A stretch of DNA of 64,000 bases from Salegentibacter lacus (GTDB taxonomy: Bacteria; Bacteroidota; Bacteroidia; Flavobacteriales; Flavobacteriaceae). Below, piece after piece: positions 27,841 through 62,225 of this stretch. The notes below the pieces were generated by a model. That model did not search any database. It saw nothing but the letters and a program-made list of their open reading frames with translations, and was not told the origin of the DNA. Position numbers and translations under genes: made by a program. The stretch spans positions 116,912-180,911 of the forward strand of contig NZ_JAIQZB010000009.1 of NCBI RefSeq assembly GCF_020164555.1, given 5' to 3'. Position 1 is the first letter of the stretch, and the number at the start of each line of letters is the position of its first letter.

Positions 27841-27896
27841 ATCGATGCTGAAATTTGAATGGATTTGATGGAATTTGAAACGAAAACAGCAAAAAA

Positions 27897-28908: not shown

Positions 28909-29205
28909 ATGAAAAGGGAATACATCCAGGTTCGATGCTCGATCTACGAGAAGAAGCTGCTTCAAAGAAGAGCAGCCAGGGCAGGAATTTCCCTTTCAGA
29001 ATACATACGAGCTACCGCCTTTGATAAAAATATTGTAGAACGAATTACCCCAGAACAAGTGGAAACTTACCAGATGTTGGTACAGTACAAAAACAACTTT
29101 ACCCGCATCGGCAATATGTTTAGAAAACGGGATCCAAAGCTGGCTAAGGAAGTGGAAGATCTTGCAAGGGAGATCAGAACGCACTTAAAAAACTTTAAAA
29201 AATGA
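28909..29205 (+). CDS. MobC-like relaxosome accessory protein
   Basis: A 98-residue ribbon-helix-helix-type protein: YIQVRCSIYEKKLLQRRAAR, then GISLSEYIRATAFDK, then a helical tail with NFTRIGNMFRK. This matches MobC/MbeC-like proteins that bind the transfer origin and recruit the relaxase. The stop overlaps the relaxase start by four bases, so they are translationally coupled. Start ATG 28909 is preferred since the family begins near this point. Confidence 0.88.
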   Translation: MKREYIQVRCSIYEKKLLQRRAARAGISLSEYIRATAFDKNIVERITPEQVETYQMLVQYKNNFTRIGNMFRKRDPKLAKEVEDLAREIRTHLKNFKK

Positions 29206-30074
29206 TAGGCAAAGGACACGCCATTTCCGGCACCAGGGTATCGATATCCTATGGCTGGAACCAGGAGAAAGAAGCTGAAGTCGTGCTCAGAGAACACGTG
29301 GCCGGAGAAACCCCCGCGGAGATAGCCGAAGAGTTTAGGATTATCCAGTCGCAAAATGAACGCTGCATTAATAACACATTAAGCTTTATCGTAAGCCCCA
29401 CCATTGAAGACGGGAAGGATCTAAGCAAAAAAGACTTGGAAGATCTCGCTAAAAGGTTTTTGAAGGAGATGAATCTGCAAAACAATCAATCCATTGGTTT
29501 TGTACATCGGGATAAAGCACATACCCACGTTCATATCTATACCAACAGAATTGGCTTTGACAGTAAAGTCTATAATGACAGCTTTATCGGAAAACGAAGC
29601 CAAATAGCGGCTGATAATGTGGCCAGGGAATTAGGGTTTAAAAGGGTTCGGGAAGTACAGCAGGAAAGGCTTAATGAGTTAAAGGGTCTGCGACAGGAAA
29701 TCAAAAATATTCATGACCGCGTACTGCAATCGAGGCCAAAATCCCTGGATGAATATATAAACAAAATGAAAGCACAGAAGGTGGAAGTGATCCCAACAAT
29801 CAATAAAGCGAATCAACTGCAGGGCTTCCGGGTGGAATATAAAGGAGTAAACCTTAAAGCCAGTGAAGTGGACCGGTCGATGAGCGGGAATAGGCTAATT
29901 CCCCAGATCTCACAAAACAGGAGTTTTACCAGGCTAAAAGAAGTACCAAAAACCTTACAGGTATTGGATAAGACAGTGCAACTAAGCAGCAATCTTTCAA
30001 CCAAAATAGCTAAAGAGTTAATAAAAGGAACAATAAAAATAATAAGAGATACCGGAATAGGTATGGGATATTAA
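29202..30074 (+). CDS. Relaxase/mobilisation nuclease (MOB family)
   Basis: Relaxases nick the transfer origin and lead DNA into a recipient through a conjugation channel. The metal-binding HUH motif is clear in FVHRDKAHTHVHIYTNR (His about 102, 107, 109). A tyrosine in VSISYGW near the N-terminus is a candidate nucleophile. At 290 residues it is short compared with plasmid relaxases but similar to other Bacteroidota mobilisable elements. No coupling protein or type IV secretion genes are in the element, so transfer must use machinery from elsewhere. Confidence 0.9.
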   Translation: MIGKGHAISGTRVSISYGWNQEKEAEVVLREHVAGETPAEIAEEFRIIQSQNERCINNTLSFIVSPTIEDGKDLSKKDLEDLAKRFLKEMNLQNNQSIGFVHRDKAHTHVHIYTNRIGFDSKVYNDSFIGKRSQIAADNVARELGFKRVREVQQERLNELKGLRQEIKNIHDRVLQSRPKSLDEYINKMKAQKVEVIPTINKANQLQGFRVEYKGVNLKASEVDRSMSGNRLIPQISQNRSFTRLKEVPKTLQVLDKTVQLSSNLSTKIAKELIKGTIKIIRDTGIGMGY

Positions 30075-32356: not shown

Positions 32357-32453
32357 AAAAAATAGGAGCCCACGCCGTTGTATATGCTTTGCGCATTTAG
32401 TGAGTGCAATTTTTTAACCTCACCTTATGGATGTACAAGCACCCTCTAAAATC
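32357..32453 (-). ncRNA. Candidate dCas12f guide RNA, copy B (77-nt scaffold plus 3' guide)
   Basis: The scaffold runs on the minus strand from 32453 to 32377 and is closely similar to copy A. It can fold into three hairpins: GGGT..ATCC, GTGAG..CTCAC and ATGC-GCAAA-GCAT. The first loop contains CTTGTA, which can pair with TACAA in the 3' ATACAAC, as in the pseudoknot of Cas12f/TnpB guide RNAs. The presumed guide (20 nt, 32376 to 32357) starts GGCGTGGGCTC and is T-rich after that. It lies 188 bases after the dCas12f stop on the same strand. Confidence 0.6.
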
Positions 32454-32454
32454 T

Positions 32455-32530
32455 TCAACCTATAATCTTACAATGCATATGATTAATACTATACCTGGTT
32501 TTAACCTGCCTCTCCTTACAAGCCCTGCTA
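32455..32530 (-). repeat. Degenerate copy of the guide-RNA-like repeat
   Basis: Between copies A and B, on the minus strand, GGGCTTGTAAGG, AGGTTAAAA and ATATGCATTGTAAG appear in the same order as in the scaffold but much altered. With it, the array has three units about 80-105 bases apart. Confidence 0.35.
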
Positions 32531-32543
32531 TTTGATTATGCTT

Positions 32544-32640
32544 TTAAAATAAGTGAGCCCACGGTTGTATATGCTCTACGCATTTAGTGAGTGTAATTTT
32601 CAACCTCACCTTACGGGTTTACAAGCACCCTCCTAAAATC
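32544..32640 (-). ncRNA. Candidate dCas12f guide RNA, copy A (77-nt scaffold plus 3' guide)
   Basis: The scaffold runs on the minus strand from 32640 to 32564 and begins one base after the dCas12f stop codon. Hairpins: GGGT..ACCC, GTGAG..CTCAC, ATGC-GTAGA-GCAT, then the 3' end ATACAAC. Loop CTTGTA can pair with TACAA next to the guide. The presumed guide (32563 to 32544) reads CGTGGGCTCACTTATTTTAA. Position at the 3' end of a TnpB/Cas12f gene on the same strand is where such RNAs are encoded. I found no good match to this guide elsewhere in the window. Confidence 0.65.
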
Positions 32641-32641
32641 G

Positions 32642-33739
32642 TCAGTCTGTGATAAGTTCAATGCCTGCCTTTTCAGCCTTGTATTTTATTTTGGCCATCA
32701 GTTCATAATAGCTCCAGTTTCTAAGCACAAATTCCTCCTCTTTGGCAATTCCAATCTTATTTTCTTGATTCACTAAAATTAGCGTACCCGCCTGATGTTT
32801 GATGCAAAAGTTGATTAATTTCCGACTGTAGAGATGCAGCCTATTAGTCACGTAATTCTTTTCCATCTCGTGGAACCTTTGTACTGCTTTGGTTTTTCGT
32901 TTTCGTCCTTTACCTGATCTTGCATAGGTAACCCCTTCCTGTGCCCTTTTCCGGGCGGCTTGTATGGCAAGCCTACGATATAGAAATTCTTCCCGGGAGC
33001 CAATGTTGAGTCTTGTCTTTCCGGTCTTTACTATAATCGGGTATTCCAGCGATAAAGAAGCTTCCGCGATCACATTAGGCTTTAAGCGATGTTTTTCTTT
33101 TTCAATTTCAAATGTGGCCAGCAAAAAGGTTTTGTCATTTTTTAATTGAATGTGGGAAGTACATAGCTTTGTCTCTCCTGCCACCACCCGCTCCAGTAGC
33201 TTTCGCTTATCAGAATAATCCCTTCCTAAATAGGTCTTTAGCGGAATGGAAAACAAACGAAAACAAAAGGCTTTTTTCTCTTCATCATAACATAATCCTT
33301 TAATGCCCTCCATATCAAATGGAAAAGCCATATCCCTTCTAAAGTTCATCAGCGAGCGTTCCCCCTTCCAGTATGCTACCTTATTTTTCTGGAACGTACC
33401 CATTAAATTATGGTTGATGTTACCTAAAATGTTGGTAGGAATTTCTCCTTTATAGCGATCGGATACTACCCGGTAGGTGGTATTGATGCGGGAGCGGTTC
33501 AGGATACCGGCTTCATCTTTCTTTTCATCGGCCAGTTTATACTTTATTCCGTCGGTTAAATAAAAGAATTCCTGGATCATTTCCTGAACGTAGAGATGAC
33601 TAATGATAAGATTGGCGGCCTTAAAGCTGCGGTTGCGCCACTGGTAGAGTTTATCTAGGGCCTCCTTTCTTTCAACTTTTGTAGGCAAATCGACAAGCAA
33701 CTGGATCTTTCGAGTGAGTTTTATTGTATCCTGTCCCAT
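32642..33739 (-). CDS. Nuclease-dead Cas12f/TnpB-family RNA-guided DNA-binding protein (dCas12f)
   Basis: The 365-residue protein aligns by eye with Bacteroidota Cas12f: NTTYRVVSDRYKGEIP (87-101), KGERSLMNFRRDMAFPF (125-141), FSIPLKTYLGRD (163-174), IGSREEFLYRRLAIQ (246-260), GKGRKRK (276-282) and LRNWSYYELMAKIKYKAEKA (339-358). All three RuvC carboxylates are gone. The RuvC-I segment reads ASLSLEYP where GVDLG is expected (Asp to Ser230). RuvC-II reads GTLILVNQ (Glu to Val323). The chain stops at residue 365, before the zinc finger and RuvC-III Asp. The start follows the sigma gene stop after two bases. Linked dCas12f and sigma factors are known in Bacteroidota to carry out RNA-guided transcription; I infer the same role here. 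Confidence 0.85.
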   Translation of the reverse strand: MGQDTIKLTRKIQLLVDLPTKVERKEALDKLYQWRNRSFKAANLIISHLYVQEMIQEFFYLTDGIKYKLADEKKDEAGILNRSRINTTYRVVSDRYKGEIPTNILGNINHNLMGTFQKNKVAYWKGERSLMNFRRDMAFPFDMEGIKGLCYDEEKKAFCFRLFSIPLKTYLGRDYSDKRKLLERVVAGETKLCTSHIQLKNDKTFLLATFEIEKEKHRLKPNVIAEASLSLEYPIIVKTGKTRLNIGSREEFLYRRLAIQAARKRAQEGVTYARSGKGRKRKTKAVQRFHEMEKNYVTNRLHLYSRKLINFCIKHQAGTLILVNQENKIGIAKEEEFVLRNWSYYELMAKIKYKAEKAGIELITD

Positions 33740-33741
33740 CG

Positions 33742-34524
33742 CTAAGCCGATTGCTGTTGTTGGTGTTTTTGCTGCATCAGCTTATAGGCGGCCATAAATT
33801 CCTGGTGGACCTCCTTTTGGGAAAGATTAAGCTCTTTCGCAATGGAAGCAAAGGAGTACTGCTTCTCATTACGCAACTGCAAGACCTTTTCCTGTTCCGC
33901 GGTCATTTTCCTTTGAATTTTTACCGCTACCAACGGCTTTGGTTTTGTTTCCAAATTGCTCCCCTGGTGGATAATGTTTTTAATATCCTCGATAGCCTTT
34001 TTTACTTCGTTGCTGGTATGGGTAATACTGCTACCCATTACCTGGCCAACAATTTTATAGCGAAAATCATACTTCAGACAGAGTTCTATAAGGCGCTTTC
34101 TTTCATTGCTGAGTAATGGAAAAACACGTCTTATCCTATCAAAGGCTTTCTGTTGCACTTCGTGGTTCAGTAGATGCACATCATCTTTCTCTGGATCAAA
34201 GCCGTACAAATATTCTTGGTAGTTCTCATAACTTTCCAAGGAATTGACGGTTCTGAAAAACTTATTTTTAGGACGAGTATAGTAGGTATAGCATTCCCTT
34301 TTCATTACCGTTCGTAGGAAATAGTAAATATGTTCAGGTCGTTCTATGCGATCTCTTTTCTCCCATAATATGAGGAAAGTATCCTGCGCCAATGTTTCCA
34401 CAGCAAAATCATCATCCAGAATTTGCCTACCAACCCAGAATATAGAGCGGTGGTACTTTGTGTAGATAAACTCCAAAGCATCGGGATGTCCTTGTTGTAA
34501 TAATTCAAAAATACGCTGTAACAT
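33742..34524 (-). CDS. ECF-like sigma factor paired with dCas12f
   Basis: The 260-residue protein has sigma region 2 (residues 1-90: FIYTKYHRSIFWVGRQILDD, AQDTFLILWEKRDRI, YFLRTVMKRECYTYY) and a region 4-like domain (128-185: RIRRVFPLLSNERKRLIEL, MGSSITHTSNEVKKAI). It then carries an extra predicted HTH (205-250: SFASIAKELNLSQKEVHQEF) and a Gln-rich tail, so it is longer than usual ECF factors. No anti-sigma gene is adjacent. Its stop is two bases before the dCas12f start, so both are made together. The likely job is to bring RNA polymerase to sites chosen by the dCas12f guide. Confidence 0.85.
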   Translation of the reverse strand: MLQRIFELLQQGHPDALEFIYTKYHRSIFWVGRQILDDDFAVETLAQDTFLILWEKRDRIERPEHIYYFLRTVMKRECYTYYTRPKNKFFRTVNSLESYENYQEYLYGFDPEKDDVHLLNHEVQQKAFDRIRRVFPLLSNERKRLIELCLKYDFRYKIVGQVMGSSITHTSNEVKKAIEDIKNIIHQGSNLETKPKPLVAVKIQRKMTAEQEKVLQLRNEKQYSFASIAKELNLSQKEVHQEFMAAYKLMQQKHQQQQSA

Positions 34525-34624: not shown

Positions 34625-34804
34625 TCATTTATCTGAATTTAATGCCTTTTCTACCTGCTCCAATTTTTGATTATATTCTGCTATTAATTCATCTGCGTAA
34701 ATTGGAGTCCTATCACCATTCAGACAATATCGTATGTAACGAGGGGTAACCTTATATTTGCAAGCAAGGGCGTTTACTACACCTGTGTTATAAGTTTTCT
34801 TCAT
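34625..34804 (-). CDS. Small HTH protein (Cro-like)
   Basis: This 59-residue frame begins at ATG 34804 and reads MKKTYNTGVVNALACKYKVT onward with a YADELIAEYNQKLEQ tail. It resembles small phage/plasmid HTH proteins (KYKVTPRYIRYCLNG as recognition region). It faces the CI-like gene across an operator region, the classic cro/cI layout. It lies 100 bases upstream of the sigma gene in the same direction, so it could be the first gene of that operon. Confidence is limited by its size. Confidence 0.6.
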   Translation of the reverse strand: MKKTYNTGVVNALACKYKVTPRYIRYCLNGDRTPIYADELIAEYNQKLEQVEKALNSDK

Positions 34805-34864
34805 AAATTACGTAAGTTTGCCTGTTCATTGGTTTGTTCCTTTTTTCGGAACAAAACCAAATAT

Positions 34865-34927: not shown

Positions 34928-35317
34928 ATGGATAAATCAAAAATGCTTGATGAGATAAAGATGCATTATGGCTTTAAAAGAGATGCAGAATTAGCAGATT
35001 TTTTAGAAATAACTAGACAGACTTTATCGAACTGGAAATCAAGAAATTCTTTTGATGCAGAATTACTATATTCTAAATGCACGGAACTAAATCCCGCTTG
35101 GCTACTAACGGGTGATGGTCCTATGCTGCAAAAAGACTCCACTAATTCAATTATTAAAGAAACCGATCCAGAAGTTTTGCGAGATAAATTAGTTAATCTT
35201 CAAAATCAATTGGATGCCCTAGAAAAAGCGAATAATGCTTTAGAAGACGCCAATGAATCCTTAAAAGAGACTAAATCAATACTGCAGAAACGAATTACAG
35301 AGCTTGAAGGTAACTAA
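34928..35317 (+). CDS. CI-like HTH repressor
   Basis: A 129-residue protein with an N-terminal phage CI-repressor HTH (HYGFKRDAELADFLEITRQT, LSNWKSRNSFDAELLYSKC, ELNPAWLLTGDGPM) and a C-terminal coiled coil (residues 80-127). It is divergent from the Cro-like gene. It starts six bases after an operator-like site, so it probably represses itself and the leftward genes, which may include the sigma-dCas12f pair. It has no peptidase domain, so it is not a LexA-type self-cleaving repressor. Confidence 0.82.
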   Translation: MDKSKMLDEIKMHYGFKRDAELADFLEITRQTLSNWKSRNSFDAELLYSKCTELNPAWLLTGDGPMLQKDSTNSIIKETDPEVLRDKLVNLQNQLDALEKANNALEDANESLKETKSILQKRITELEGN

Positions 35318-37129: not shown

Positions 37130-37136
37130 AATATTT

Positions 37137-45504: not shown

Positions 45505-46713
45505 TTACAACAGTACTTCCAGAGCTTTATCCACTACCTGAGTATCTAATTCTTTTAAATATGCCTGGGTCACCGTTAGGTTTTGATGTCCTAAAGATTC
45601 GCTAATCACATCAGTAGCAACTCCTTTTTGTTTTAGGCAGTTTGCAAAACTATGGCGGGCCACATAACTGCTGACATTTTTTGTGATCTCACAAATTGTA
45701 GCTAGTTCCTTTAGATTTTTATTGTAGATCCCTAACATTTTATGTTTTCGATCTGCAAGTTGGGTAGGAGTGTAGTTTTCACGATACAGTAATGGAAATA
45801 CATATTTATTCCCATACCCATTAATTCGGTAATAGTCTAGAATTTCTCTTACCGGGGGCATTATGGCAATTGAGAAATTTCCTTTGGTTTTAGCCCTGGT
45901 GTAATAGATCACATTTTTTTCTACATCTTTCCATTCCAGACCCATCATGTCGGCAAAGTTCATCCCCCTGGTATAGAAACTAAAAACAAAGTAGTTTCTG
46001 GTATCAACTAAATGCGGATGATTACTCAAGTCCACATTGACAATGCGCATTATTTCATCAAAATCCAGGGCACGTTTAAAACCTTTGCCTCTTAAACCTG
46101 AAATTTTATATTTTTTAAAGGGATATAAACTTTCTTTCACAATGCCACGCTCTATGGCTTTGTTGAACAATGCCCTTATAGCTCTCATTTTTACGCCAAC
46201 ACCTCCGTCGGTTCCACCTCGGGATCTTAAGAAAGCATCATATTTGCTCAAAAAGGTAGAGTTCACTTCGCGAAAACTAAGTTTTTTGCTCTTATGAAAT
46301 ATTTGCACCGAGGTTTTGGTATCCTTATAAGACTTCGCATTTCCTACACGACCAGCATAGGTCATCTCGTCAACTATTTCATCAAAAAACGCAAAGACAT
46401 CATTTTTAACCGGGTTGAAGGTAATTCTATAAAGCTTATCAAAATCTTCAAGTGTATAATCAGGATTTTGAATTTCAATTTCCGATGCTACCTGGTATGC
46501 CCGATCCTTAATTTTTACCAGTAACCGGTTATACGGAAAATGATTTTTCATCTTTTTGTTAAAGGTCCCTGTTGAAGCTGACCATTCGGAAATCTCTGCA
46601 CTAAATGGGGTTTTATAATATTTAGTTTGCCGATCTTTGGTCACACGCAAGAAGATTGGGTACAACCCATCGGTTAATTTCTTTGTTCTCTGTACAATTT
46701 TTATAGTAATCAT
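45505..46713 (-). CDS. Tyrosine recombinase, integrase of element 1
   Basis: The integrase has an arm-binding N-terminus (KIVQRTKKLTDGLYPIFLRV), a SAM-like core domain and a catalytic domain. Catalytic residues: Arg in FYTRGMNFADMMGL, Lys in ARAKTKGN, Arg-His in SYVARHSFANCLK, and nucleophile Tyr in LTVTQAYLKEL. The start is set at ATG 46713 (MITIKIV); a longer frame to 46755 would translate the 22-bp terminal repeat and has no family support. It lies next to attR and reads inward. It is the enzyme that inserted element 1 in tRNA-Asn. Confidence 0.93.
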   Translation of the reverse strand: MITIKIVQRTKKLTDGLYPIFLRVTKDRQTKYYKTPFSAEISEWSASTGTFNKKMKNHFPYNRLLVKIKDRAYQVASEIEIQNPDYTLEDFDKLYRITFNPVKNDVFAFFDEIVDEMTYAGRVGNAKSYKDTKTSVQIFHKSKKLSFREVNSTFLSKYDAFLRSRGGTDGGVGVKMRAIRALFNKAIERGIVKESLYPFKKYKISGLRGKGFKRALDFDEIMRIVNVDLSNHPHLVDTRNYFVFSFYTRGMNFADMMGLEWKDVEKNVIYYTRAKTKGNFSIAIMPPVREILDYYRINGYGNKYVFPLLYRENYTPTQLADRKHKMLGIYNKNLKELATICEITKNVSSYVARHSFANCLKQKGVATDVISESLGHQNLTVTQAYLKELDTQVVDKALEVLL

Positions 46714-46724
46714 GCGGCTTAAAT

Positions 46725-46746
46725 TGGGTACAACATAGGTACAACA
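46725..46746 (+). repeat. Right subterminal repeat of element 1
   Basis: Identical 22-bp copy of 4827-4848 with two GTACAAC units, 11 bases upstream of the integrase ATG. It may also let the integrase regulate its own promoter. Confidence 0.6.
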
Positions 46747-46861
46747 AATGGGCAAATAAAGGTAAATATTGTAAAACTAAATGACAAGGAAAAAGTTGTA
46801 AAATATTGATTATCAATACATAAGAAGTTAAATGAAATTATCTGAAACACCAATTTCGCGG

Positions 46862-53094: not shown

Positions 53095-53261
53095 TAGGAT
53101 TCCGGAAAATATGGAATATAGATTAACTGCAAAACATACATTTTTCTTGCTTGGGAATTGAGATTCCTATTTTTGACAGAAGAATATGAAAAATCTGTTG
53201 TCCTTAAAATCTCAAAAAGGTTACCGATTAGGACACTTTTTATATCCGTTTAAATGATACA

Positions 53262-53353
53262 ATTTGATATTGTGAAAAAAGAAAAACCCCGTAAACAGTG
53301 AGTTTTACGGGGTTTTGTTGTTATTTGTAGGCTTAAAAGTGCTCGAGGCGGGA
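53262..53353 (+). repeat. Left att copy of element 2 (92-bp direct repeat)
   Basis: An exact 92-bp copy of 62134-62225, holding the last 14 bases of tRNA-Leu and its downstream terminator. It marks the left border of element 2. Weaker similarity extends about 11 bases further left (two differences). Confidence 0.93.
53283..53316. terminator. Duplicated tRNA-Leu terminator, left copy
   Basis: A perfect 13-bp stem AAAACCCCGTAAA / TTTACGGGGTTTT with an eight-base loop, T-rich on both strands, so it can act in both directions. It now also terminates the metal-efflux operon side. Confidence 0.8.
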
Positions 53354-53417
53354 GTGCTTTAATTCTCTCTCACCCCGTATTTACAAAGCCTTTCGGTTAG
53401 GGCATTTTAGAGTGCCC

Positions 53418-53434
53418 CCGAATTAGACACCTTT
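53418..53434 (+). repeat. Left inner end repeat of element 2
   Basis: CCGAATTAGACACCTTT occurs here and at 62096-62112, just inside both att copies. It may be an integrase or excision-factor binding site. Confidence 0.5.
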
Positions 53435-53454
53435 AACTTAAAATTAACTATAAT

Positions 53455-53597
53455 CTACTTCTTTTTAAGCTCAGTAGTCTTTCCTCCCTGTTCCAACATC
53501 ATTATATCAGTAGGGATAAAAGTAAGTTTAAGCATGATCTGATCGGCTTTAAAAATGTTTTCCCCTGCGGCATCCAGAGGAACCGGTGGTTGGCTAG
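53455..53597 (-). pseudogene. C-terminal fragment of an unknown protein
   Basis: About 46 codons with stop but no start (PPVPLDAAGENIFKADQIML, then FIPTDIMMLEQGGKTTELKK). It reads like a genuine protein end; I do not recognise the family. The remainder of 53095-53749 has no gene apart from the att repeat. Confidence 0.4.
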
Positions 53598-53749
53598 TTC
53601 CCTTTCATATTTTATTATCCCATTTATATAAGAATTCCCTACTAAATTTGAACTCAGTTTTTAAATTCCTAGAGAGAAAACACCATTCAAATACTTAAAT
53701 CTCTAAGAAATCGGTATTAGCGTCGGTATAATTTTAGGATAAAAATTTA

Positions 53750-54730
53750 TCATTTCACCTCTATATCCCATTTAATAATAAACAATCTATCCCTTAGATT
53801 ATTTAAAGTCAAAAACAGTTCCTTTTCTTCGGGAAGCTCTCCATAGACTAAGTTTTGAAATTCATCCAAGTATGCTTTTTTTAGCTCTGTCCGTAGCATA
53901 TTTGAATCACTAAATATGAGAGCTTTAGAAGGATGGGATGCTAGCCAAGCATTATCATTCTTATAACTTTTCACATCATCATTTGCAACCTTTATAATCA
54001 TATCCTCAAACTCCTTAGAATTAAAAAAATCTGCAAATTCTTTTTTGAGTAAGAGTTTATGCAAATCATAAAGATGCCTTATTTTTTTCTTTAAATCTTC
54101 AACGGGATTTTCACTATATGAAAAACGTACAAGGCTCATTATTTTTTCACAAATTGTTCTTGTAGGTTCCAGTACTAAGACTTCAAAAGGCAAAAGGCCA
54201 TACTCCTTTGCAATATCGACTTGATCATTATCAACCATCATTTCCCCGATAAATGAAGAGATTCTCTTTTTTGTATATGGCTCAAAATATCCCAACCAGG
54301 TAGCCTCCACTATAATGGCATCTCTAACCTGACCGTAATCACCATCAAACTCCTTAGAATATGAATGGGCAGTTTTACGGTTCATACCCATTTTTTGGGT
54401 TAGTCCTTCAATATTGATTTCCGGTAAAACCTCCTTAACTACTTTACTAATTTCTCTAATTTTTGTAGTTAGTTTATTATTGGATTCCCCCTCATTTCGT
54501 AGAACCACTAAGTCAATATCTTCAGAAAATCTTTCAATGATCTTATAACATTTTGACAAAGCTGTACCTCCTTTAAATATAGTATCCTTTCCTATCTTAT
54601 TATTATAAATTGTATAGAGTGCATAGGTTACCCAATAGTCTTTTTCAACATATATAGGCAGTATTTGCATCCGGTCAGAAGTAAATTGTATGGCTTGCTT
54701 AAACAGCTTCTTGTCCTGATGAAGTTTCAT
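53750..54730 (-). CDS. AbiEii-type nucleotidyltransferase toxin
   Basis: The 326-residue protein has the AbiEii/AbiGii nucleotidyltransferase motif: TIFKGGTALSKCYKIIERFS then EDIDLVVL, where the Gly-rich turn and D-x-D-type acid residues bind metal and NTP. Relatives transfer nucleotides to tRNA or other targets and stop growth on phage infection. The start overlaps the antitoxin stop by four bases. The gene looks complete. Confidence 0.9.
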   Translation of the reverse strand: MKLHQDKKLFKQAIQFTSDRMQILPIYVEKDYWVTYALYTIYNNKIGKDTIFKGGTALSKCYKIIERFSEDIDLVVLRNEGESNNKLTTKIREISKVVKEVLPEINIEGLTQKMGMNRKTAHSYSKEFDGDYGQVRDAIIVEATWLGYFEPYTKKRISSFIGEMMVDNDQVDIAKEYGLLPFEVLVLEPTRTICEKIMSLVRFSYSENPVEDLKKKIRHLYDLHKLLLKKEFADFFNSKEFEDMIIKVANDDVKSYKNDNAWLASHPSKALIFSDSNMLRTELKKAYLDEFQNLVYGELPEEKELFLTLNNLRDRLFIIKWDIEVK

Positions 54731-55512
54731 AAAATGTTCCAGGTATTTGTATTAGACAATACTTTAGAAGCCCCAGGAACTTTATACTTGGTAATTGGAT
54801 TCAACGATACTTTTAAAGGATTTGTAATAGATTCTTCCTTTACTTCTCCTAACATTGCACCTAGTAGAGCTCTTGTGGAGGGTGGATATTTTAAAGATAA
54901 TCTAACTAATTCTTTCTTATCATTACCGGGCAATTTCCCTACTATTTTTAATAGCCGTTCTAAAGATCCTTTTATAGAACTATCAGGTATTTTTTTGATG
55001 TACTTTATACTATCTAAAATTTGAAGTAAAGGAATGTTCTGCCTGGTAATTGTGTTCTTCTGCTTTATAAAAGAAATTGTGTAACGTTCTCTTTTTAGCT
55101 TCGGCCTTGTTTGATTTCTCCCAATCTGAATAGTATTACTTACTTGACTGGTCAAACCTAATTTATTATAAATACTATACCCCGTAAGATAACCTATAAG
55201 CTTTCCATCATCTTCCAATAGATCTTTAACTACCTGTTCCTGATCTGGCTGTACTTCACCAAATGGAGTTTTTTCCGCCTTATAATATTTTCCTTTTGAT
55301 AATTTAGAGATTTTACCCGCTTCCACCATCCGGTTTAAAGCTTTAATCACAGCTTCTTTTTTTTTCACCTCTATACTAAAATCCTCATAGGTGAAAACAT
55401 ATCCCTTAGGGAATCTATTGATCGTATTAGCTATATAATCAGTAGTTTTCAAGGATTTATGTTTTTTCAAAGATAATATTTTGTCCAGTTTATTAAATAA
55501 AAAACTGGACAT
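54727..55512 (-). CDS. AbiEi-type antitoxin (winged-helix regulator)
   Basis: A 261-residue protein with an N-terminal winged helix (FTYEDFSIEVKKKEAVIKAL, NRMVEAGKISKLSKGKYYK) followed by the AbiEi antitoxin part (YLTGYSIYNKLGLTSQVSNT, QIGRNQTRPKLKRERYTISF). In type IV systems it neutralises the toxin indirectly and represses the operon. It is the first gene of the pair and overlaps the toxin gene. It belongs to a different AbiEi subgroup from the orphan at 44236. Confidence 0.88.
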   Translation of the reverse strand: MSSFLFNKLDKILSLKKHKSLKTTDYIANTINRFPKGYVFTYEDFSIEVKKKEAVIKALNRMVEAGKISKLSKGKYYKAEKTPFGEVQPDQEQVVKDLLEDDGKLIGYLTGYSIYNKLGLTSQVSNTIQIGRNQTRPKLKRERYTISFIKQKNTITRQNIPLLQILDSIKYIKKIPDSSIKGSLERLLKIVGKLPGNDKKELVRLSLKYPPSTRALLGAMLGEVKEESITNPLKVSLNPITKYKVPGASKVLSNTNTWNIL

Positions 55513-55750
55513 TTTTCAAATAAATTTTGGAGATAAGTGTAGATGACTTTGGATTAAATGCCATCTATATGATTTTTATACTTTATTATATTCAACTTAC
55601 TGAGCCCTTATTCAATCGCTGAAACCTATTGATATCACTAGGGTTATACTCTTTTATATTTCTTCGACTCTTTTCAATGAGTCCTTATTGAGCCCATTAA
55701 AATATAGATTATGAGCCCTTTCAAAACATATACAGGACCTGCCCCTGTGG
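55513..55750. other. Region upstream of abiEi
   Basis: 238 bases with no gene. TGAGCCC is found three times (55601, 55689, 55712), twice in the longer phrases TGAGCCCTTATT and TTGAGCCCATTAA. A small hairpin ACAGG/CCTGT (55732-55747) leads into the guide-RNA-like copy C. Confidence 0.4.
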
Positions 55751-55839
55751 TTCAATACGAGGGTTCTTGTAACCCCGTGAGTTGAATTTCGCTCACTAAA
55801 TGTGATTAGCATATACAACGGCGTGGGCTCTATTATTTT
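55751..55839 (+). ncRNA. Guide-RNA-like structured repeat, copy C (in element 2)
   Basis: On the plus strand, 55751-55819 matches the scaffolds at 32377-32453 and 32564-32640. Hairpins are kept with changed bases: GGGTT..AACCC, GTGAG..CTCAC with a different loop, and ATGT-GATTA-GCAT using a U-G pair, then ATACAAC. The next 20 bases start GGCGTGGGCTC, the same 11 as in copy B. No dCas12f gene is near, so it may be used by the element 1 protein or be an independent repeat. It converges on the end of the histidine kinase gene. Confidence 0.5.
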
Positions 55840-55850
55840 TAGGATAAAAC

Positions 55851-56951
55851 TTAATTCCTAAAACATAAATAAAAAGTTGTTCCCGCATTTTTCTCGCTGC
55901 TTACTTTAATAGTACCTCCCAAGCTGGTCATGTAGCTTTTTACCAAATAAAGCCCAATACCTTTGCTATCTTGATGATCTGTAAACACCTGGTGCAATTC
56001 AAATAATTTATTTCCGTTTTCTTCCATATCTAACCCAATTCCATTATCTGAAAATTGAATTTCGATACCGGTCGCACTTCTTTTAGAAACAATGCTGATT
56101 TGCGGTGCAATCCCGGGTTTGGAATATTTTATTGAATTGGTGATTAAATTGAGAAATATGCTGTGCAAATAGAATTTATTGAACCGGAGGATTTCAATTT
56201 CAGAAAATTCAATCTCGAAGATGGTTCCCGTATTTTCAATTATAGATTCAAGGGAGTCGATAATATTATATACAATTTCTTTTATATTCACTGGTTCCAA
56301 ACCGAGTTTTAATAGTTGATTTTCCCTGAGGTGGTCAATCTGGTCGTTCAAGGTGGATTTTAATCTTAGAACCGATTTTCCTAACATGTCAAGATATAGT
56401 TGGGTCTCTTCATTCTCTATTTTTTTGAAATCTAGTAGTTCAATAAGAGATATTAAATTATTTACGGGTGCGCGTAAATCGTGAGCGGTAGTGTAACTTA
56501 ATTTAGTGAGTCCGGAATTTACTGAGGTAAGGTTTAATATCCTGTACTGGCGATCTTCTTCTAGCTTTTTGAGGTGTGTTATATTTTTTGAAATGGCATA
56601 GATTAATTTTTTTTCTGGTACGGGAACAGAGGTCCAGGTGAGCCATACAATTTTACCCGATTTAGTGATGTAGCGATTTTGAAAGTGCACTAAAGGAATT
56701 CCTTCTAAAATTTTTGCGCGGGTCTCTGCAGTTTTCACCTTATCCAGTGGGTGGACAAAATGTCTTATTGGATGGCTAAAAAGTTCTTCCTCCGTATAAC
56801 CCATTAGGTTTATAAATGCAGGGTTTATTTTCCTGAAGTAGCCATCAAAACCGGCAATACATAAGAAATCATGAGAAAGTGAAAAGAAAAGCTCAAGATC
56901 AAGGTCAGTTTTTTGGGTGTAATTATCAGTATCCATTGTAGGTATTGGCAA
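55851..56951 (-). CDS. PAS-domain sensor histidine kinase
   Basis: The 366-residue protein is a soluble sensor kinase. It has a PAS domain (residues 15-130: CIAGFDGYFRKINPAFINLM, GYTEEELFSHPIRHFVHPLD), a dimerisation region with the phospho-acceptor in TTAHDLRAPVNNLISL, and a GHKL ATPase domain with NLITNSIKYSKPG (N box), DNGIGLDME (G1) and KGIGLYLVKSY (G2). No response regulator is adjacent, so it is an orphan. No membrane helix is present, so it senses a cytoplasmic signal. It is cargo of element 2. Confidence 0.92.
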   Translation of the reverse strand: MPIPTMDTDNYTQKTDLDLELFFSLSHDFLCIAGFDGYFRKINPAFINLMGYTEEELFSHPIRHFVHPLDKVKTAETRAKILEGIPLVHFQNRYITKSGKIVWLTWTSVPVPEKKLIYAISKNITHLKKLEEDRQYRILNLTSVNSGLTKLSYTTAHDLRAPVNNLISLIELLDFKKIENEETQLYLDMLGKSVLRLKSTLNDQIDHLRENQLLKLGLEPVNIKEIVYNIIDSLESIIENTGTIFEIEFSEIEILRFNKFYLHSIFLNLITNSIKYSKPGIAPQISIVSKRSATGIEIQFSDNGIGLDMEENGNKLFELHQVFTDHQDSKGIGLYLVKSYMTSLGGTIKVSSEKNAGTTFYLCFRN

Positions 56952-57082
56952 GGGAAGTAAATGTAAGTAAAAAAATATACCTTATTATTTCGTGTTCATC
57001 TCCTCTATGGAATCAGAACCGATTTCTTTAATAAAACTTTGAAGTAAAGGTATTTTTGTAATTTTAGTAGTAGTGTTTTTAA
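56952..57082. other. Start of the 1.1-kb gene-poor stretch
   Basis: The stretch 56952-58067 has only one small open frame (57083-57262) and the paired AATTTGCG motif. The rest, including 57500-58067, shows no coding pattern or fold that I can support. Confidence 0.4.
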
Positions 57083-57262
57083 TCAGGTAATGGAGTGATT
57101 GGATTTGGGTTTAAGATTAGAAAATGTTCCGGAGCCTAAGATATTAAGCAATATCGATAGCCCAAAAACAATTAATGCCCAGATTGGATAAGCCTTGGCT
57201 TCTTCAAGTTTTGAACCAAGGTCTTTCATTTCCACTGAATGATCAGAAATACCTTTTTCCAT
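57083..57262 (-). CDS. Small membrane protein or remnant of a mobilisation accessory protein
   Basis: A 59-residue frame from ATG 57262 (MEKGISDHSVEMKDLGSKLE) with a short coiled segment, one membrane helix (PIWALIVFGLSILLNILGS) and a charged tail. The shape recalls the accessory protein after the relaxase in element 1 (30086-30544), which is longer. An in-frame stop lies nine codons upstream of the ATG. It may be what remains of a mobilisation gene. Confidence 0.4.
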   Translation of the reverse strand: MEKGISDHSVEMKDLGSKLEEAKAYPIWALIVFGLSILLNILGSGTFSNLKPKSNHSIT

Positions 57263-57436
57263 TTCCTGATGTTTTAAAAGCAGTTTTTAAAATTTATAAG
57301 TTTTAAAGCTAGCATTTTGCGATGTAAGAAGAGCAAAAATGAGTAGCAAGAGGGTAACGGGCAAAGCCGCGTTACATTTTTTTAAATCACTCATTTTTAA
57401 TTAGTTATAATTTTTTTGCGAATTGGGTTTTGTAGG

Positions 57437-57492
57437 AATTTGCGACAAATGACTTGGGAAGCCGCATAATTAGGCTTGAATTTGCGACAATT
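57437..57492. repeat. Paired AATTTGCG motif with 42-bp spacing (element 2)
   Basis: AATTTGCGACAAATG (57437) and AATTTGCGACAATT (57479) start 42 bases apart, as in element 1 (30574 and 30616). The spacer also keeps parts of its sequence next to the first copy (AAATGnCnTG). A shared transfer or replication site is likely. Confidence 0.6.
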
Positions 57493-58067
57493 CGTAAAAT
57501 GAGAAAGGATAAAGTAGATGAATTTTAAATAAATAAGAAAAATAAAGATGTTCCCGGTTTAATTAAAAACTTGTGCTTTAATAAACCTCTCACCACTTTT
57601 CCTTCCACTTCGCAAAAGCTCCATTACAGAAAAAGAGGTTCATTACAATTGTCTTGGACACGAGCCAAAAAGCTATAAAGTGTAAGCGGTAGATAAAATG
57701 ATTAGGATAAGCTTTTTGACTCAAGTCCGCCTGGCAGTAACTTAAATTCACCGATCAGGATTTCAACTTCTTTAAAATTCTTCTTACCACACCTTACCTT
57801 TTGATGCTAAAGAACAAGCTTTGAAATTAACCGGAGTGCATAAACCGCTGCACTATTTATAACTCCTCTTTAATTTTAAAGCTTGAAGATGAAGATCATC
57901 AAAAGGTAATGCGATGGCGCTGGAAGAAGTAAATGAAAATGACTTCACTTCTTATCCATCCTGAACTACAGTCGGTTTAATATTGGAATGCAAAAGGAAA
58001 ATGCTCCAGGTGAAAAAAGTAAATGATTTTAATAATTCTTTTTACTAACTGAGCCTTCTAAATATTT

Positions 58068-58928
58068 TTACTTTTCCAATTTCATTAATTTTTCATTTAG
58101 ATCTACATAGGCGCCATAGGAATCACTACAATCAGTGATATGGTCATAAAGGCTTAAAAGCGAACTTGCTGCTTTTTTCCCTGCAGGGTCATTATCCAGG
58201 TAAAGCAATACACGCTTATAGCCCGGAATTAGTATTTTCACCCGATCTAAAAAAGCCAGGGAATTTAAAATGATACAATCTGAATTTTGAACTAAGTCTG
58301 CATTTATAGTGGACAGGGAAAGAAAGTCAAAAATTCCTTCGGTAATTACCAACTGCTGGGAACTATTCCGGATAATTGAATAGGTTTTCGGACTACTGGA
58401 ATTTTTAAAGTACTTGTTTCGAAGTTCCCAGCCTTCCTTGTCATTTTTAAGACCAATGGCATAATATGACTTATCTTTTCGATGGTACCAGACCTGAGAA
58501 CAATAAAGCCTTGCTATTTCAACCGGAATTTTCCGTGATTTTAAATAGTGTAATAGGGCAGGATGATCCAGGGGTTCTGCCGTTATAATTTGAATTTTCC
58601 CCTTTTTTGGTTGCTGTTTCTTTGGGGGAGTGTGAAAAGGGGAGATAGTATCTTCCTGTAAAAATTGTAAAGCTTCTTTAACCTCGCAGTTTTTAATGAG
58701 ACATACCAGGTCAATTACATTTCCTCCTTTTCCTATTCCGAAATCATACCACCTGTTTATCACCCGGGAAACCTTAAATGAGGCCTTGGTTTCTGATCGC
58801 AGGGGACTTAAGAACCAGGCTTCTTTTTCTGTGGTCCTACTGGGAAAGTGTCCCAACTTTGCTAGGCTTTTGATGATACAAATGTTGCGGGCTTTTTCAC
58901 AGCTTAATCTTTCTTTTTTCATCAGCAT
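58068..58928 (-). CDS. Primase-like protein (CHC2-like plus toprim domain, element 2)
   Basis: Paralogue of 27897-28799: 286 residues with CHC2-like KLGHFPSRTTEKEAWFLSPL and WYDFGIGKGGNVIDLV, and toprim LVITEGIFDFLSL and LYLDNDPAGKKAA. The zinc cysteines are again missing. It probably primes replication of excised element 2. A second ATG two codons in (MKKERLS) is an equally good start. Confidence 0.85.
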   Translation of the reverse strand: MLMKKERLSCEKARNICIIKSLAKLGHFPSRTTEKEAWFLSPLRSETKASFKVSRVINRWYDFGIGKGGNVIDLVCLIKNCEVKEALQFLQEDTISPFHTPPKKQQPKKGKIQIITAEPLDHPALLHYLKSRKIPVEIARLYCSQVWYHRKDKSYYAIGLKNDKEGWELRNKYFKNSSSPKTYSIIRNSSQQLVITEGIFDFLSLSTINADLVQNSDCIILNSLAFLDRVKILIPGYKRVLLYLDNDPAGKKAASSLLSLYDHITDCSDSYGAYVDLNEKLMKLEK

Positions 58929-58985
58929 TTATTTTAGCGTGTTTTAGTCCTGTTTATAGTTTTGATTTTTAATTCTGTTTCCGGT

Positions 58986-59215
58986 CATCATTATTTTTTG
59001 ATGACAGTTTGATGACATTTTGATGACCACAGGAAGCCTTGCTATTACTGGGCTAATCTTATTTTGTCATCATTCATCAAAAAATAGAAGGGTTTAAAAC
59101 CTTTTTCTTTCAACAGCAGCTTCAATTTTGATGAGACGATGACAACGCACGGGAACCCCAGCAAAGACTGGCTATTCCGCGTCATCATTCGTTCATCAAT
59201 TCATCATTTTTTGCC
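58986..59215. repeat. Iteron-like TGATGACA repeats, candidate origin of element 2
   Basis: Between primase and helicase genes, TTTGATGACA-type units occur at least four times in a row near 58997-59025, with further ones at 59074, 59131 and 59181. The conserved phrase TTACTGGGCTAATCTTATTT (complement of the element 1 phrase) is also present. The layout equals that at 27621-27840. Confidence 0.6.
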
Positions 59216-59231
59216 GAAAACCTCAATTTAC

Positions 59232-60437
59232 CTAGGCTGATTGCTCTGGAAAATTTTCAGCCAGGAAACTTTTACTTATAGTAAAATAGCGTCCTTTGGC
59301 ATCTTTAAAAATGGTGGTTCCATCAGCCCAAATTGAAAACTTTTGGTACATATGGGAATTGGGCTGGCTCTCCAGCTTCCAGTCCTTTTTTAGAATTTTT
59401 CGTATTTGGGTAAGATCAGTGCGAAGCCGGGTTTTACCTATGGCATTTAAAGCATCTATCGGGCAAAAATTTATCTCTTCCATATCATTATCTTCCATAA
59501 CCATAAGCAGGATATTGGCCAGCTCTTTTTCAATTCTGTTTTTGTTGTGCTGTACCAGTTTCCGTAAAGCAGGGGTTTCAATTTGCCTGGCACTAAACCA
59601 CATTCGCGTCTGGTGGGGTGTGGATAGTTTTCTGTGTTGTAGATGATAAAGGAATGCAGGGATTTCTTCTTCCAGCTTTTCTAAATAAGCGGTCTGTTCT
59701 TTCTTAATGGTGGGAACCTTAATAACCCAGAACCGGGTTTCGTGTTGGTCAATCTTAATAAAGTTTTCTTCGTTATTGCTACATAGGACAAACTTGCCGA
59801 AAAATTCAACTTCCCGCTTATCTTTTCCCTTAGCTTCTAATTTGTTGATATTGGTTGTGCTTAGGTATTTAATTCTTTCGGTAAGTTCTTCTTTATTGAA
59901 TAATACTTCGTCAATACAGATTAGAAGTTTATTGGCCCAGTCGGAATTAAACTGGCTGGTAAAATTATCATTGGTGAGATAGGTAAGATTGTTTTCAAAG
60001 ATCTTCTTTAACCATTTTAAAAAGGTGCTCTTTCCGGTGGAACGTTCCCTGGAGACCAGGCAAAGAATAGGGAGGACCTGTGTAGGTTTAATAAATAAAA
60101 GCTGCAGGTAATCCAGGCCCAGTTCGTAGTGATCGCCAAAGATATGCCGGACGAATTCCAATGATACCGCGCAATTCCCTTCTTCTAATGTATGGCTAAG
60201 CGGGGCATAGGTATTATAGAAATTTGAATGTGAGTATTTAAAATTGAGATGATCGGGAATACAGGTGAAGCCATCATATTTGGGAATCCCGGCGAGGTAT
60301 GTTTTCCCGTGATCCTGTCTTATGGTCTCGATATTCCAGGAAACCAGAGATTCATTTACCTGACCGGAAATACTAGGTGTTTTTACCAATTTGTAATATT
60401 GAGTCCCCACTCTAATATATGAACCCTCCCGCTTCAT
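59232..60437 (-). CDS. SF3-like replication helicase / primase-helicase family protein (element 2)
   Basis: A 401-residue paralogue of 26417-27622, same length, with Walker A in SRERSTGKSTFLKWL, Walker B in KLLICIDEVLF and sensor FVLCSNNEENF. The middle is nearly the same as its paralogue while the ends differ more. It acts with the primase-like protein. The excisionase-type HTH gene found before it in element 1 is not present here. Confidence 0.85.
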   Translation of the reverse strand: MKREGSYIRVGTQYYKLVKTPSISGQVNESLVSWNIETIRQDHGKTYLAGIPKYDGFTCIPDHLNFKYSHSNFYNTYAPLSHTLEEGNCAVSLEFVRHIFGDHYELGLDYLQLLFIKPTQVLPILCLVSRERSTGKSTFLKWLKKIFENNLTYLTNDNFTSQFNSDWANKLLICIDEVLFNKEELTERIKYLSTTNINKLEAKGKDKREVEFFGKFVLCSNNEENFIKIDQHETRFWVIKVPTIKKEQTAYLEKLEEEIPAFLYHLQHRKLSTPHQTRMWFSARQIETPALRKLVQHNKNRIEKELANILLMVMEDNDMEEINFCPIDALNAIGKTRLRTDLTQIRKILKKDWKLESQPNSHMYQKFSIWADGTTIFKDAKGRYFTISKSFLAENFPEQSA

Positions 60438-60750
60438 TATTCAAATTTTAAACATTCATCTTATAAGTAAATATATCGTCAATTAAATTACAAAAACCTT
60501 GTAATAATATAATGAAAAAGAGCAATAATAAGTTTTGATTGAGAATAGTGTAATTTGATATTTGTAGTTTTTTGACCTAACGTCAAGACCTATCATTTAG
60601 CATTAAATATCATTTGAAAAGCTGAATCGTTCAAATAGAAATTTCAATAAAAATTATTGGAATATGGTGGATTAGAGCAGATTTCGGAAAATCAAGCCTA
60701 AAATTTAAACAAATCTTCCTAATGATCCGGGGAGTAAATAGAAGAACTAA
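60438..60750. other. Intergenic region between helicase and integrase of element 2
   Basis: 313 AT-rich bases with no gene, fold or repeat that I can support. It should hold the helicase promoter. Confidence 0.4.
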
Positions 60751-61971: not shown

Positions 61972-62095
61972 CCTTTTTAGCTTTTAAATTGAATTAAATT
62001 TAGCTGAAATAAATATAGCATCAAAGACGTAAACACTTATTTAACAGGACTTTGTATGCAATTCGGGCGCACTTATTTTCATTCTCTAAGTGACA

Positions 62096-62112
62096 CCGAA
62101 TTAGACACCTTT
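62096..62112 (+). repeat. Right inner end repeat of element 2
   Basis: Exact 17-bp partner of 53418-53434, 21 bases inside the right att copy. Confidence 0.5.
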
Positions 62113-62133
62113 TAGATGTAATTAAATGATATT

Positions 62134-62225
62134 ATTTGATATTGTGAAAAAAGAAAAACCCCGTAAACAGTGAGTTTTACGGGGTTTTGTTGTTATTTGT
62201 AGGCTTAAAAGTGCTCGAGGCGGGA
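62134..62225 (+). repeat. Right att copy of element 2, at the 3' end of tRNA-Leu
   Basis: Exact 92-bp partner of 53262-53353. It includes the last 14 bases of tRNA-Leu plus the downstream terminator (13-bp stem, 62155-62188). Crossing-over within the repeat restores the tRNA in either state. Confidence 0.93.
62155..62188. terminator. tRNA-Leu terminator
   Basis: Perfect 13-bp stem with eight-base loop, 23 bases after the tRNA 3' end on the minus strand, with T-rich flank. Duplicated at 53283-53316. Confidence 0.85.

What the first reader, a model, noticed from the sequence alone, without database searches (positions are those of the whole stretch)
32642..34524. Sigma factor coupled to a nuclease-dead Cas12f: an RNA-guided transcription locus inside a mobile element
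Seen: a 365-residue TnpB/Cas12f-type protein with RuvC-I Asp replaced by Ser, RuvC-II Glu replaced by Val, and the zinc finger and RuvC-III deleted, encoded two bases after a sigma factor gene. Known: linked dCas12f and ECF-like sigma factors in Bacteroidota can direct RNA polymerase to guide-chosen sites without a promoter motif. Inferred: this pair does the same, here carried by an integrative mobilisable element next to phage-type CI/Cro regulators. Mobility and the strong C-terminal truncation make it an unusual member.
Basis: partly seen in the sequence, partly recalled or inferred. Interest (0 to 1): 0.95.

Follow-up and report, generated by a model that had tools for sequence, protein, structure and literature searches.

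The report
RNA-guided switch for nutrient-import genes
An integrated DNA element in a bacterium, most likely of the genus Salegentibacter, carries a sigma factor gene joined to a gene for a Cas12f without its DNA-cutting residues and two guide-RNA genes, a known kind of RNA-guided gene activator, and sequence matches suggest that it would turn on a nutrient-import operon elsewhere in the genome by starting transcription past a predicted RNA stop signal.

Summary
The 365-aa protein is a Cas12f without RuvC catalysis (D to S228, E to V323, no zinc ribbon or RuvC-III), 2 bp behind a sigma factor gene. It is 74% identical to dCas12f of PDB 9n9c, the sigma 55% to RpoE of 9n9q; both solved proteins are encoded by one Flagellimonas taeanensis locus. 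So this is a new member of a known system. The claimed oddities fail: 365 aa is the family length, and the solved system also sits beside an integrase and tRNAs. New here: (1) two tandem guide-RNA genes follow dcas12f, and an orphan third lies in a second integrated element. (2) Guides match a conserved structured RNA leader, without Rfam match, upstream of susC import operons and of many sigma-dcas12f operons: 27 of 59 guides in Salegentibacter (shuffled mean 1.2) and 17 of 28 in other genera (shuffled 0.4), on the sense strand, 16 of those 17 behind a G. (3) In 149 family genomes all 10 with guide RNAs are among the 33 with the leader (p = 8e-8). (4) The leader's target strand is also the 5' arm of a predicted terminator. 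Best reading: RNA-guided initiation inside the leader bypasses attenuation. Untested at the bench.

The parts
32642..33739 (-). dCas12f gene, 365 aa, RuvC catalytic residues lost
   Evidence: 74% identical over 363 aa to PDB 9n9c_A; S228 and V323 at the catalytic positions
33742..34524 (-). sigma factor gene (sigmaE/RpoE-like), 260 aa, 2 bp upstream of dcas12f
   Evidence: PF04542, PF04545; 9n9q_C RpoE E = 4.3e-91
32564..32632 (-). guide-RNA scaffold 1, directly behind the dcas12f stop
   Evidence: R1 covariance model hit, 92 bits; alignment A1, helices and pseudoknot counted
32547..32563 (-). guide 1 (first 17 nt), CGTGGGCTCACTTATTT
   Evidence: 14 of 17 to the susC leader site at C52, preceded by G
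32377..32446 (-). guide-RNA scaffold 2, tandem copy 187 bp away
   Evidence: R1 hit, 85.9 bits; repeats D1/D2
32360..32376 (-). guide 2 (first 17 nt), GGCGTGGGCTCCTATTT
   Evidence: 13 of 17 to the susC leader site, perfect over the first 11 nt
55759..55819 (+). orphan guide-RNA scaffold 3, in a second integrated element
   Evidence: R1 hit, 56.9 bits, E = 7.5e-11
55820..55836 (+). guide 3 (first 17 nt), GGCGTGGGCTCTATTAT
   Evidence: 16 of 17 to the susC leader site
34625..34804 (-). Cro-position small ORF, 59 aa, upstream of sigma
   Evidence: 88-95% identical ORFs in 5 relatives; no Pfam match
34832..34855 (.). operator-like palindrome GTTTGTTCC-N7-GGAACAAA between the CI and Cro-position genes
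   Evidence: exact; none in 100 shuffles
34928..35317 (+). divergent CI-type repressor gene
   Evidence: PF07022 Phage_CI_repr, E = 1.3e-12
28909..30074 (+). mobilisation genes: MbpA (28909-29205) and MbpB-like relaxase (29202-30074)
   Evidence: NF041418 over its cut-off; PF03432 over its cut-off, NF041420 (MbpB) below its cut-off
45505..46755 (-). tyrosine integrase of element 1
   Evidence: PF00589, PF13102, PF17293
4736..46906 (.). element 1 (42 kb) between perfect 45-bp repeats 4736-4780 and 46862-46906; the left copy overlaps tRNA-Asn 4704-4778
53223..62225 (.). element 2 (9 kb) carrying the orphan guide RNA; 92% direct repeat 53223-53353 / 62095-62225, integrase 60751-61971(-), tRNA-Leu 62211-62293(-)

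Best explanation
The window holds a sigma factor and a Cas12f without its catalytic residues (74% identical to the solved dCas12f of PDB 9n9c) with two adjacent guide-RNA genes, and the pair is predicted to switch on a SusC-SusD import operon elsewhere in the genome by starting transcription inside that operon's RNA leader. Shown by sequence: the lost RuvC sites; the guide-RNA scaffold with three hairpins and a pseudoknot; tandem and orphan guide RNAs; a conserved structured leader upstream of susC and of many sigma-dcas12f operons; guide-to-leader matches on the sense strand; two mutually exclusive leader folds, one of them a terminator-like hairpin with a T-run. Inferred: dCas12f with its guide RNA forms an R-loop at the leader strand that is the 5' arm of the terminator; the linked sigma recruits RNA polymerase, which starts downstream of the R-loop, so the new transcript cannot contain that arm, cannot form the terminator, and reads into susC whatever the leader senses. 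Where the sigma-dcas12f operon bears the same leader (in this genome the second copy, on contig C1) the circuit would feed back on itself. In the window copy a CI/Cro-type switch stands in the leader's place, so expression probably follows the state of the mobile element.
For: Homology to the solved complex. Scaffold R1: 97.0% of pair cells standard, 16 cells changed on both sides, 0/500 shuffles each; 4 copies in the own genome. Leader R2: 55 distinct rows, 99.3% paired, 21 of 38 pairs changed on both sides, 0/500; no Rfam match. Alternative pivot-terminator helix: 95.7% paired, 23 cells changed on both sides, 0/500 each. Leader contexts by tblastn: in the genus 13 of 30 before sigma and 16 of 30 before susC; in other genera 14 and 10 of 30. 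Guides against leaders of the same genome: 27 of 59 distinct guides reach 13/17 sense, 5 antisense, shuffled mean 1.17, max 4. Replicate in 15 genomes of other genera: 17 of 28 sense, 0 antisense, shuffled mean 0.41, max 3; 16 of the 17 sites follow a G. Co-occurrence: 10 of 10 guide-RNA genomes within 33 leader genomes of 149, p = 8e-8, and 2e-6 without the own genus; 12 of 15 Salegentibacter genomes have both, 3 neither. The F. taeanensis guide hits a site behind G upstream of a susC gene with a leader. Own susC leader: the 3' half folds as a hairpin, -27.9 kcal/mol, z -3.08, with a T-run after it. Own target operon: susC, susD, M16 peptidase.
Against: In this genome guides 1 and 2 reach only 14/17 and 13/17 at the susC leader, which by my estimate is not significant for one guide over a 4-Mb genome; guides 3 and 4 reach 16/17, but in their register the base before the site is A, not G. 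In Salegentibacter G precedes 14 of 27 sites. 32 of 59 guides and 11 of 28 do not reach 13/17. Two guide-RNA genomes (G002, G009) showed a leader only at the sigma operon. The full leader's minimum-energy fold is the non-terminator fold (-50 kcal/mol), so the default state is not known. Single scaffolds do not fold better than shuffles (z -0.62 and -0.99), and further pair types are reached by 90 of 500 shuffles. 23 of 33 leader genomes have no such guide RNA, so the leader has a function of its own. Nothing was measured.
Confidence: 0.6

Rival explanations
1. dCas12f with its guide RNA binds the susC leader but acts mainly as a roadblock that stops leader transcription, a TldR-like repressor, and the sigma factor works elsewhere.
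For: The target lies inside the leader, downstream of a sigmaA-like -7 box (45 of 55 leaders), where a bound R-loop would block elongation. Dead TnpB proteins (TldR) repress (PMC13418256, abstract and passages seen).
Against: The tight gene pair with sigma; the published activity of the solved relatives is activation (recalled, not held here); sites are nearly all on the sense strand (17 to 0, 27 to 5), the orientation expected if transcription leaves the R-loop towards susC, which a roadblock does not need.
Confidence: 0.15
2. The guide-leader similarity is not DNA targeting: guides share ancestry with the leader strand, or act at RNA level by pairing with the terminator arm of the leader RNA.
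For: The guide copies the leader strand that pairs with the terminator 3' arm, so the guide RNA could pair with that arm. Many guides share the GGCGTGGGCT start.
Against: Guides of different sequence hit different places of the same kind of leader (about +80, +317 to +343, +580 to +622); rare leader variants are met by matching guides in the same genome (GGCGTGTCATCC in G006, 16/17; TTGTGGGATAC in three of four Allomuricauda genomes); G precedes 16 of 17 sites in other genera.
Confidence: 0.12
3. The main target is the leader of sigma-dcas12f operons themselves: a self-amplifying, element-serving circuit, with susC leaders hit only because they share the leader.
For: Leader upstream of sigma in 21 of 37 related loci (L021-L057), one more weakly, plus the own C1 locus; guides match it.
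Against: In F. taeanensis and two relatives the guide matches a site at +343 of a leader that is not the sigma one (susC follows in L196 and L191, L192 could not be typed), and no such match was found in their sigma-dcas12f loci; the window operon has no leader yet carries matching guides; in the own genome all four guides match the susC leader better than the sigma leader.
Confidence: 0.1

Closest known systems
dCas12f-sigmaE of Flagellimonas (Allomuricauda) taeanensis, PDB 9n9c/9n9m/9n9o/9n9q
   Same: Same protein pair (74% and 55% identity), same dCas12f length, same gene order, the same type of guide-RNA scaffold behind dcas12f, also beside an integrase gene and tRNAs.
   Different: The window copy has two tandem guide RNAs and a CI/Cro-type switch in place of the leader RNA; its guides match the +80 site of the susC leader instead of the +343 site.
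TldR (TnpB-like nuclease-dead repressors), e.g. of Enterobacter prophages
   Same: RuvC-dead TnpB/Cas12-type protein, RNA-guided, carried by mobile DNA, target in a host surface-protein gene (PMC13418256, abstract and passages seen).
   Different: TldR represses and has no linked sigma (recalled); the present protein scores 60.1 bits against the TnpB family model with a cut-off of 100 and is nearest to Cas12f.
CRISPR-Cas12f nucleases (Cas14, UnCas12f1)
   Same: Homologous over residues 85-362 (9nzo, E = 1.7e-43); pseudoknotted scaffold RNA (recalled for them, for this one).
   Different: Catalytic residues and C-terminus lost; the only direct repeats found next to the gene are two whole scaffold-plus-guide copies, no repeat-spacer array (32100-32660).
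Transcription attenuators/riboswitch-like leaders
   Same: Structured 5' leader, two exclusive folds, terminator-like hairpin with T-run.
   Different: No Rfam family matches; the switching strand is at the same time the guide-RNA match.

Membership tests
dCas12f-sigmaE RNA-guided transcription systems | Cas12f homologous to 9n9c with lost catalytic residues | tested here: met
   E = 4.4e-186, 74% identity over 363 aa, S and V at the catalytic positions
dCas12f-sigmaE RNA-guided transcription systems | Directly linked cognate sigma factor | tested here: met
   2 bp gap; 9n9q_C RpoE, E = 4.3e-91
dCas12f-sigmaE RNA-guided transcription systems | Guide RNA encoded at the locus | tested here: met
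   Two R1 scaffolds behind dcas12f
dCas12f-sigmaE RNA-guided transcription systems | Genomic target with 5'-G motif (motif recalled from the preprint abstract) | tested here: inconclusive
   16 of 17 sites in other genera follow G; 14 of 27 in Salegentibacter; in the own genome G for guide 1, A for guides 2, 3 and 4 at the susC leader
dCas12f-sigmaE RNA-guided transcription systems | RNA binding, sigma and RNA polymerase recruitment, guide-set start site | not testable with these tools
   needs RIP-seq, ChIP-seq, 5'-end mapping
TldR repressors | TnpB-derived, no sigma partner | tested here: not met
   sigma linked; TnpB model 60.1 bits against cut-off 100; best relatives are Cas12f
CRISPR-Cas12f nuclease | Intact RuvC D/E/D | tested here: not met
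   S228, V323, C-terminus absent
Known Rfam RNA family (leader) | Match to a curated model | tested here: not met
   cmscan: no hit on the leaders of L016, L036, L028, L071 at E <= 1, nor on those of L114, L120, L196, L124 at E <= 10 (the 4 listed hits lie outside the leaders)

The most novel reading that the evidence does not exclude
The natural job of dCas12f-sigma systems is RNA-guided bypass of attenuation: they start transcription between the two arms of a terminator in a structured leader RNA, not in Rfam, that guards SusCD import operons, and they use the same leader for feedback on themselves. Mobile elements carry the switch, and spare guide RNAs on further elements, to take over host nutrient import.
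Probability: 0.5. Interest if true: 0.87.

Novelty: new variant of a known kind. Interest (0 to 1): 0.72.

Why it matters
RNA-guided transcription by dCas12f and sigma is known from reconstituted systems (recalled). What it naturally controls, and why its site lies where it does, would become directly testable: one leader RNA, one target strand, one predicted start interval, in bacteria of which named strains exist. It would join RNA-guided initiation with transcription attenuation at one sequence, explain why guides are so alike across genera, and give a structured RNA of Flavobacteriaceae without an Rfam family to study.

Tried and rejected
Rejected: protein outside Cas12f (PDB and family hits say otherwise). 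Rejected: unusual truncation and unusual mobility. Rejected: the shared GGCGTGGGCT as part of the scaffold; guides of quite different start follow the same scaffold end and matching ends near nt 17 (positions 1-17 were used for selection, 18-30 were not). Tried without yield: near matches of guides 1 and 2 over 18-21 nt in the own genome, up to 3 mismatches (no leader site among them); targets for guides such as AACGTAGAAATCAC or ATTGCGGGTAC; the reports of the solved systems were not in the paper library. A first tblastn with the Cro-position ORF was one base out of frame and was repeated in frame. A regex for scaffolds failed at first and was replaced.

Rows left out: two scaffold-like hits without the GAGGG start were not aligned, but one of them (L043, 6846) was still counted as a guide, where it is the one of 17 without G; 10 of the 68 remaining distinct scaffolds were left out of A1; 30 of 32 genus leaders were used; 27 of the 48 leaders found were used, and the guide loci of G104, G113 and G114 were left out for want of a usable leader; L173, L185 and L187 were not given; L134 (weak leader, other genes) stayed in the counts. 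In one search a paper search for a known susC attenuator leader gave no such title among the 20 listed of 85; I read passages of one of them.
Full report
OBSERVATION. Aligned to active Cas12f 9nzo, the RuvC-I Asp is S228 and the RuvC-II Glu is V323, and the chain ends before the zinc ribbon and RuvC-III. The dCas12f and sigma of locus L028 (Allomuricauda taeanensis JCM 17757) are identical to 9n9c_A and 9n9q_C, so L028 is the locus of the solved system; the window proteins are 74% (363 aa) and 55% (261 aa) identical to them. All 120 listed of 1302 homologues are 360-374 aa. L028 too has a tyrosine integrase and tRNAs nearby, and a DUF5712 protein with a relaxase match below the cut-off.

SETTING. 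The window belongs most likely to a Salegentibacter genome; this is inferred from its same-genus relatives, whose contigs agree in length and match position with named Salegentibacter records. Element 1 is bounded by a perfect 45-bp direct repeat, 4736-4780 and 46862-46906, the left copy overlapping tRNA-Asn. It holds MbpA, a relaxase, a tyrosine integrase, a type III restriction-modification pair and the sigma-dcas12f operon. Element 2, with its own integrase and a 92% direct repeat at tRNA-Leu, lies at 53223-62225. The genome has a second full-length dCas12f, 82% identical, on contig C1.

GUIDE RNAs. Behind dcas12f stand two tandem copies of a 69-70-nt scaffold, spaced 187 bp. The same scaffold follows dcas12f in relatives. 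58 of 68 distinct scaffolds were aligned (A1). The structure I named has three hairpins and a pseudoknot between the first loop (TTGTA) and the scaffold end (TACAA): 97.0% of pair cells are standard, 6 pairs and 16 cells changed on both sides, each reached by 0 of 500 shuffles; further pair types are reached by 90 of 500. Folded singly, the two window copies are no better than shuffles. The model R1 finds 4 copies in the own genome: two behind the window dcas12f, one behind the C1 dcas12f, and an orphan at window 55759-55819 in element 2. 12 of 15 Salegentibacter genomes have copies.

THE LEADER. A guide-like string turned up about 200 bp upstream of sigma in relatives, inside a longer conserved element. 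Its model R2 (built from 24 sequences) finds 32 places in 12 of 15 Salegentibacter genomes, the same 12 that have guide RNAs (Fisher p = 0.002; one of the three without either is only 61% complete). Loci were returned for 30 of these 32: by tblastn 13 stand before a sigma gene, 16 before susC and 1 (L134, a weak hit) before neither; a small divergent ORF, helix-turn-helix-like where I could judge, precedes most (by eye; HTH_3 for the own one). Of 30 loci from other dCas12f-bearing genera 14 stand before sigma, 10 before susC, 6 before neither within the stretch held. On 57 matches (A4; 55 distinct) the fold has 99.3% standard pairs and 21 of 38 pairs changed on both sides, 0/500 shuffles (the alignment is fitted to that structure). 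Rfam has no match. 45 of 55 distinct leaders have TANNTTTGC at -29 to -34 of the model start, against 4 of 1941 control windows; TAnnTTTG is the flavobacterial sigmaA -7 box (PMC9723704, passages seen).

TWO FOLDS. The strand GGCGTGGGCT..CTTAT (the pivot) pairs upstream in the first fold. It can instead pair with ATAAG..CCACGCC, which a T-run follows in the own susC leader and many others. This second helix is 95.7% paired with 23 cells changed on both sides (0/500 shuffles for cells, paired percentage and score; 13/500 for pairs; 14/500 for types), well above slid versions. In the own susC leader the 3' half folds at -27.9 kcal/mol (z -3.08) and the whole at -50 (z -4.0) in the first fold. 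So it looks like an attenuator; which state is the default is not known.

GUIDES MATCH LEADERS. I read the sequence after each of the 62 R1 hits in the genus and compared the first 17 nt of the 59 distinct guides with the leader regions of the same genome (30 of 32 leaders; up to susC, or 290 nt for sigma operons). 27 of 59 reach 13 of 17 on the sense strand, 5 of 59 on the antisense strand; 100 rounds of shuffled guides give a mean of 1.17 and a maximum of 4. In the 27, matching falls to background after position 17; positions 1-17 were used for selection, 18-30 were not; the base before the site is G in 14, A in 8, C in 4, T in 1. A replicate on other genera, 28 guides and 27 of 48 leaders in 15 genomes: 17 sense, 0 antisense, shuffled mean 0.41, maximum 3, and 16 of the 17 sites follow a G. 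Different guides hit different places of the leaders: the pivot (about +80), +317 to +343, and +580 to +622. The F. taeanensis guide hits G-TTGTGGGATACCCGTTA at +343, upstream of susC. Sequences are related, and shuffles do not remove relatedness; the numbers are strong but not probabilities of independent events.

CO-OCCURRENCE. In 149 genomes of the family (at least 90% complete asked for, 148 genera) the leader is in 33 and the guide RNA in 10, and all 10 lie within the 33 (p = 8e-8; 2e-6 without the own genus; both searches used stricter filters that lose weak matches). 23 genomes have the leader alone; of 20 leaders fetched from 17 such genomes 15 have susC downstream (two of these more than 2.3 kb away, behind another sigma-type gene) and 5 do not within the stretch. 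So the leader is a wider regulatory element that the dCas12f system would exploit.

THE OWN GENOME. Two leaders: C52:130026-130175(-), 502 bp from pivot to the ATG of susC (998 aa), followed by susD and an M16 peptidase gene, and C1:309945-310095, before the second sigma-dcas12f. Guides 3 and 4 match the susC pivot 16/17, guide 1 14/17, guide 2 13/17; all four match the C1 leader less well. A degenerate pattern for guides 3 and 4 hits exactly only those two guide RNAs and the susC pivot; with up to 2 mismatches there are 5 hits against 7 for the reversed pattern, so only the exact hit is telling.

CONTROL OF THE WINDOW OPERON. The window operon has no leader (window among 39 sources; 22 strong matches and one weak, L032). 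In its place stand a 59-aa ORF, a palindromic operator and a divergent CI-type gene. Both genes are found again in 5 of 38 other loci (L022, L025, L049, L055, L056), none of which has the leader. So two control modules seem to replace each other; 10 of the 38 loci have neither (L057 is a fragment) and one has only the weak leader match.

MECHANISM. Known for relatives (recalled from the preprint abstracts; the papers are not held): dCas12f with guide RNA recruits sigma and RNA polymerase, and the start site is set by the distance to the R-loop. In the susC leader the R-loop would cover the pivot, which is the 5' arm of the terminator; the 3' arm begins 60 nt downstream and the T-run ends at 73. 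Any start downstream of the R-loop yields RNA without the 5' arm, hence no such terminator, whatever the exact spacing. This is inference. The rivals are a roadblock, common ancestry or RNA-level pairing, and a purely self-serving loop.

VERDICT. The pair is a new member of a known system. The likely natural target, the leader RNA and the predicted attenuator bypass are what I could not find described. I cannot say whether the reports of the solved system already describe the targets; paper searches did not find those reports.

Noticed in passing
window 31104-32099 (-): RhuM-type domain fused to a Fic/DOC domain (PF13310 and PF02661), directly downstream of the guide-RNA pair.
   Followed up: no
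window 35557-42425 (+): GmrSD_N-type gene at 35557-36651 and a type III restriction-modification pair (N6_N4_Mtase and ResIII) inside element 1.
   Followed up: no
L006 2612-2858, L007 2612-3213, L046 9107-9524: Guide-RNA arrays in relatives repeat a unit that includes about the last 27 codons of dcas12f, so the arrays seem to grow by duplication of the gene's 3' end.
   Followed up: partly
L012, L013/L057: dcas12f fragments with stops beside well-kept guide-RNA scaffolds: guide RNAs may outlive their protein gene and work with a copy elsewhere.
   Followed up: no
L202, L204, L208: Leader RNA upstream of a small family of about 110-120 aa proteins in genomes without this guide RNA.
   Followed up: no
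L214, L219: Leader RNA upstream of another sigma-type gene, with susC more than 2.3 kb downstream, in genomes without this guide RNA.
   Followed up: no
window 58068-60437 and 26417-28799: Element 2 at tRNA-Leu carries DnaG-like and DUF5906 genes inverted relative to those of element 1, in 76-79% identical blocks.
   Followed up: partly
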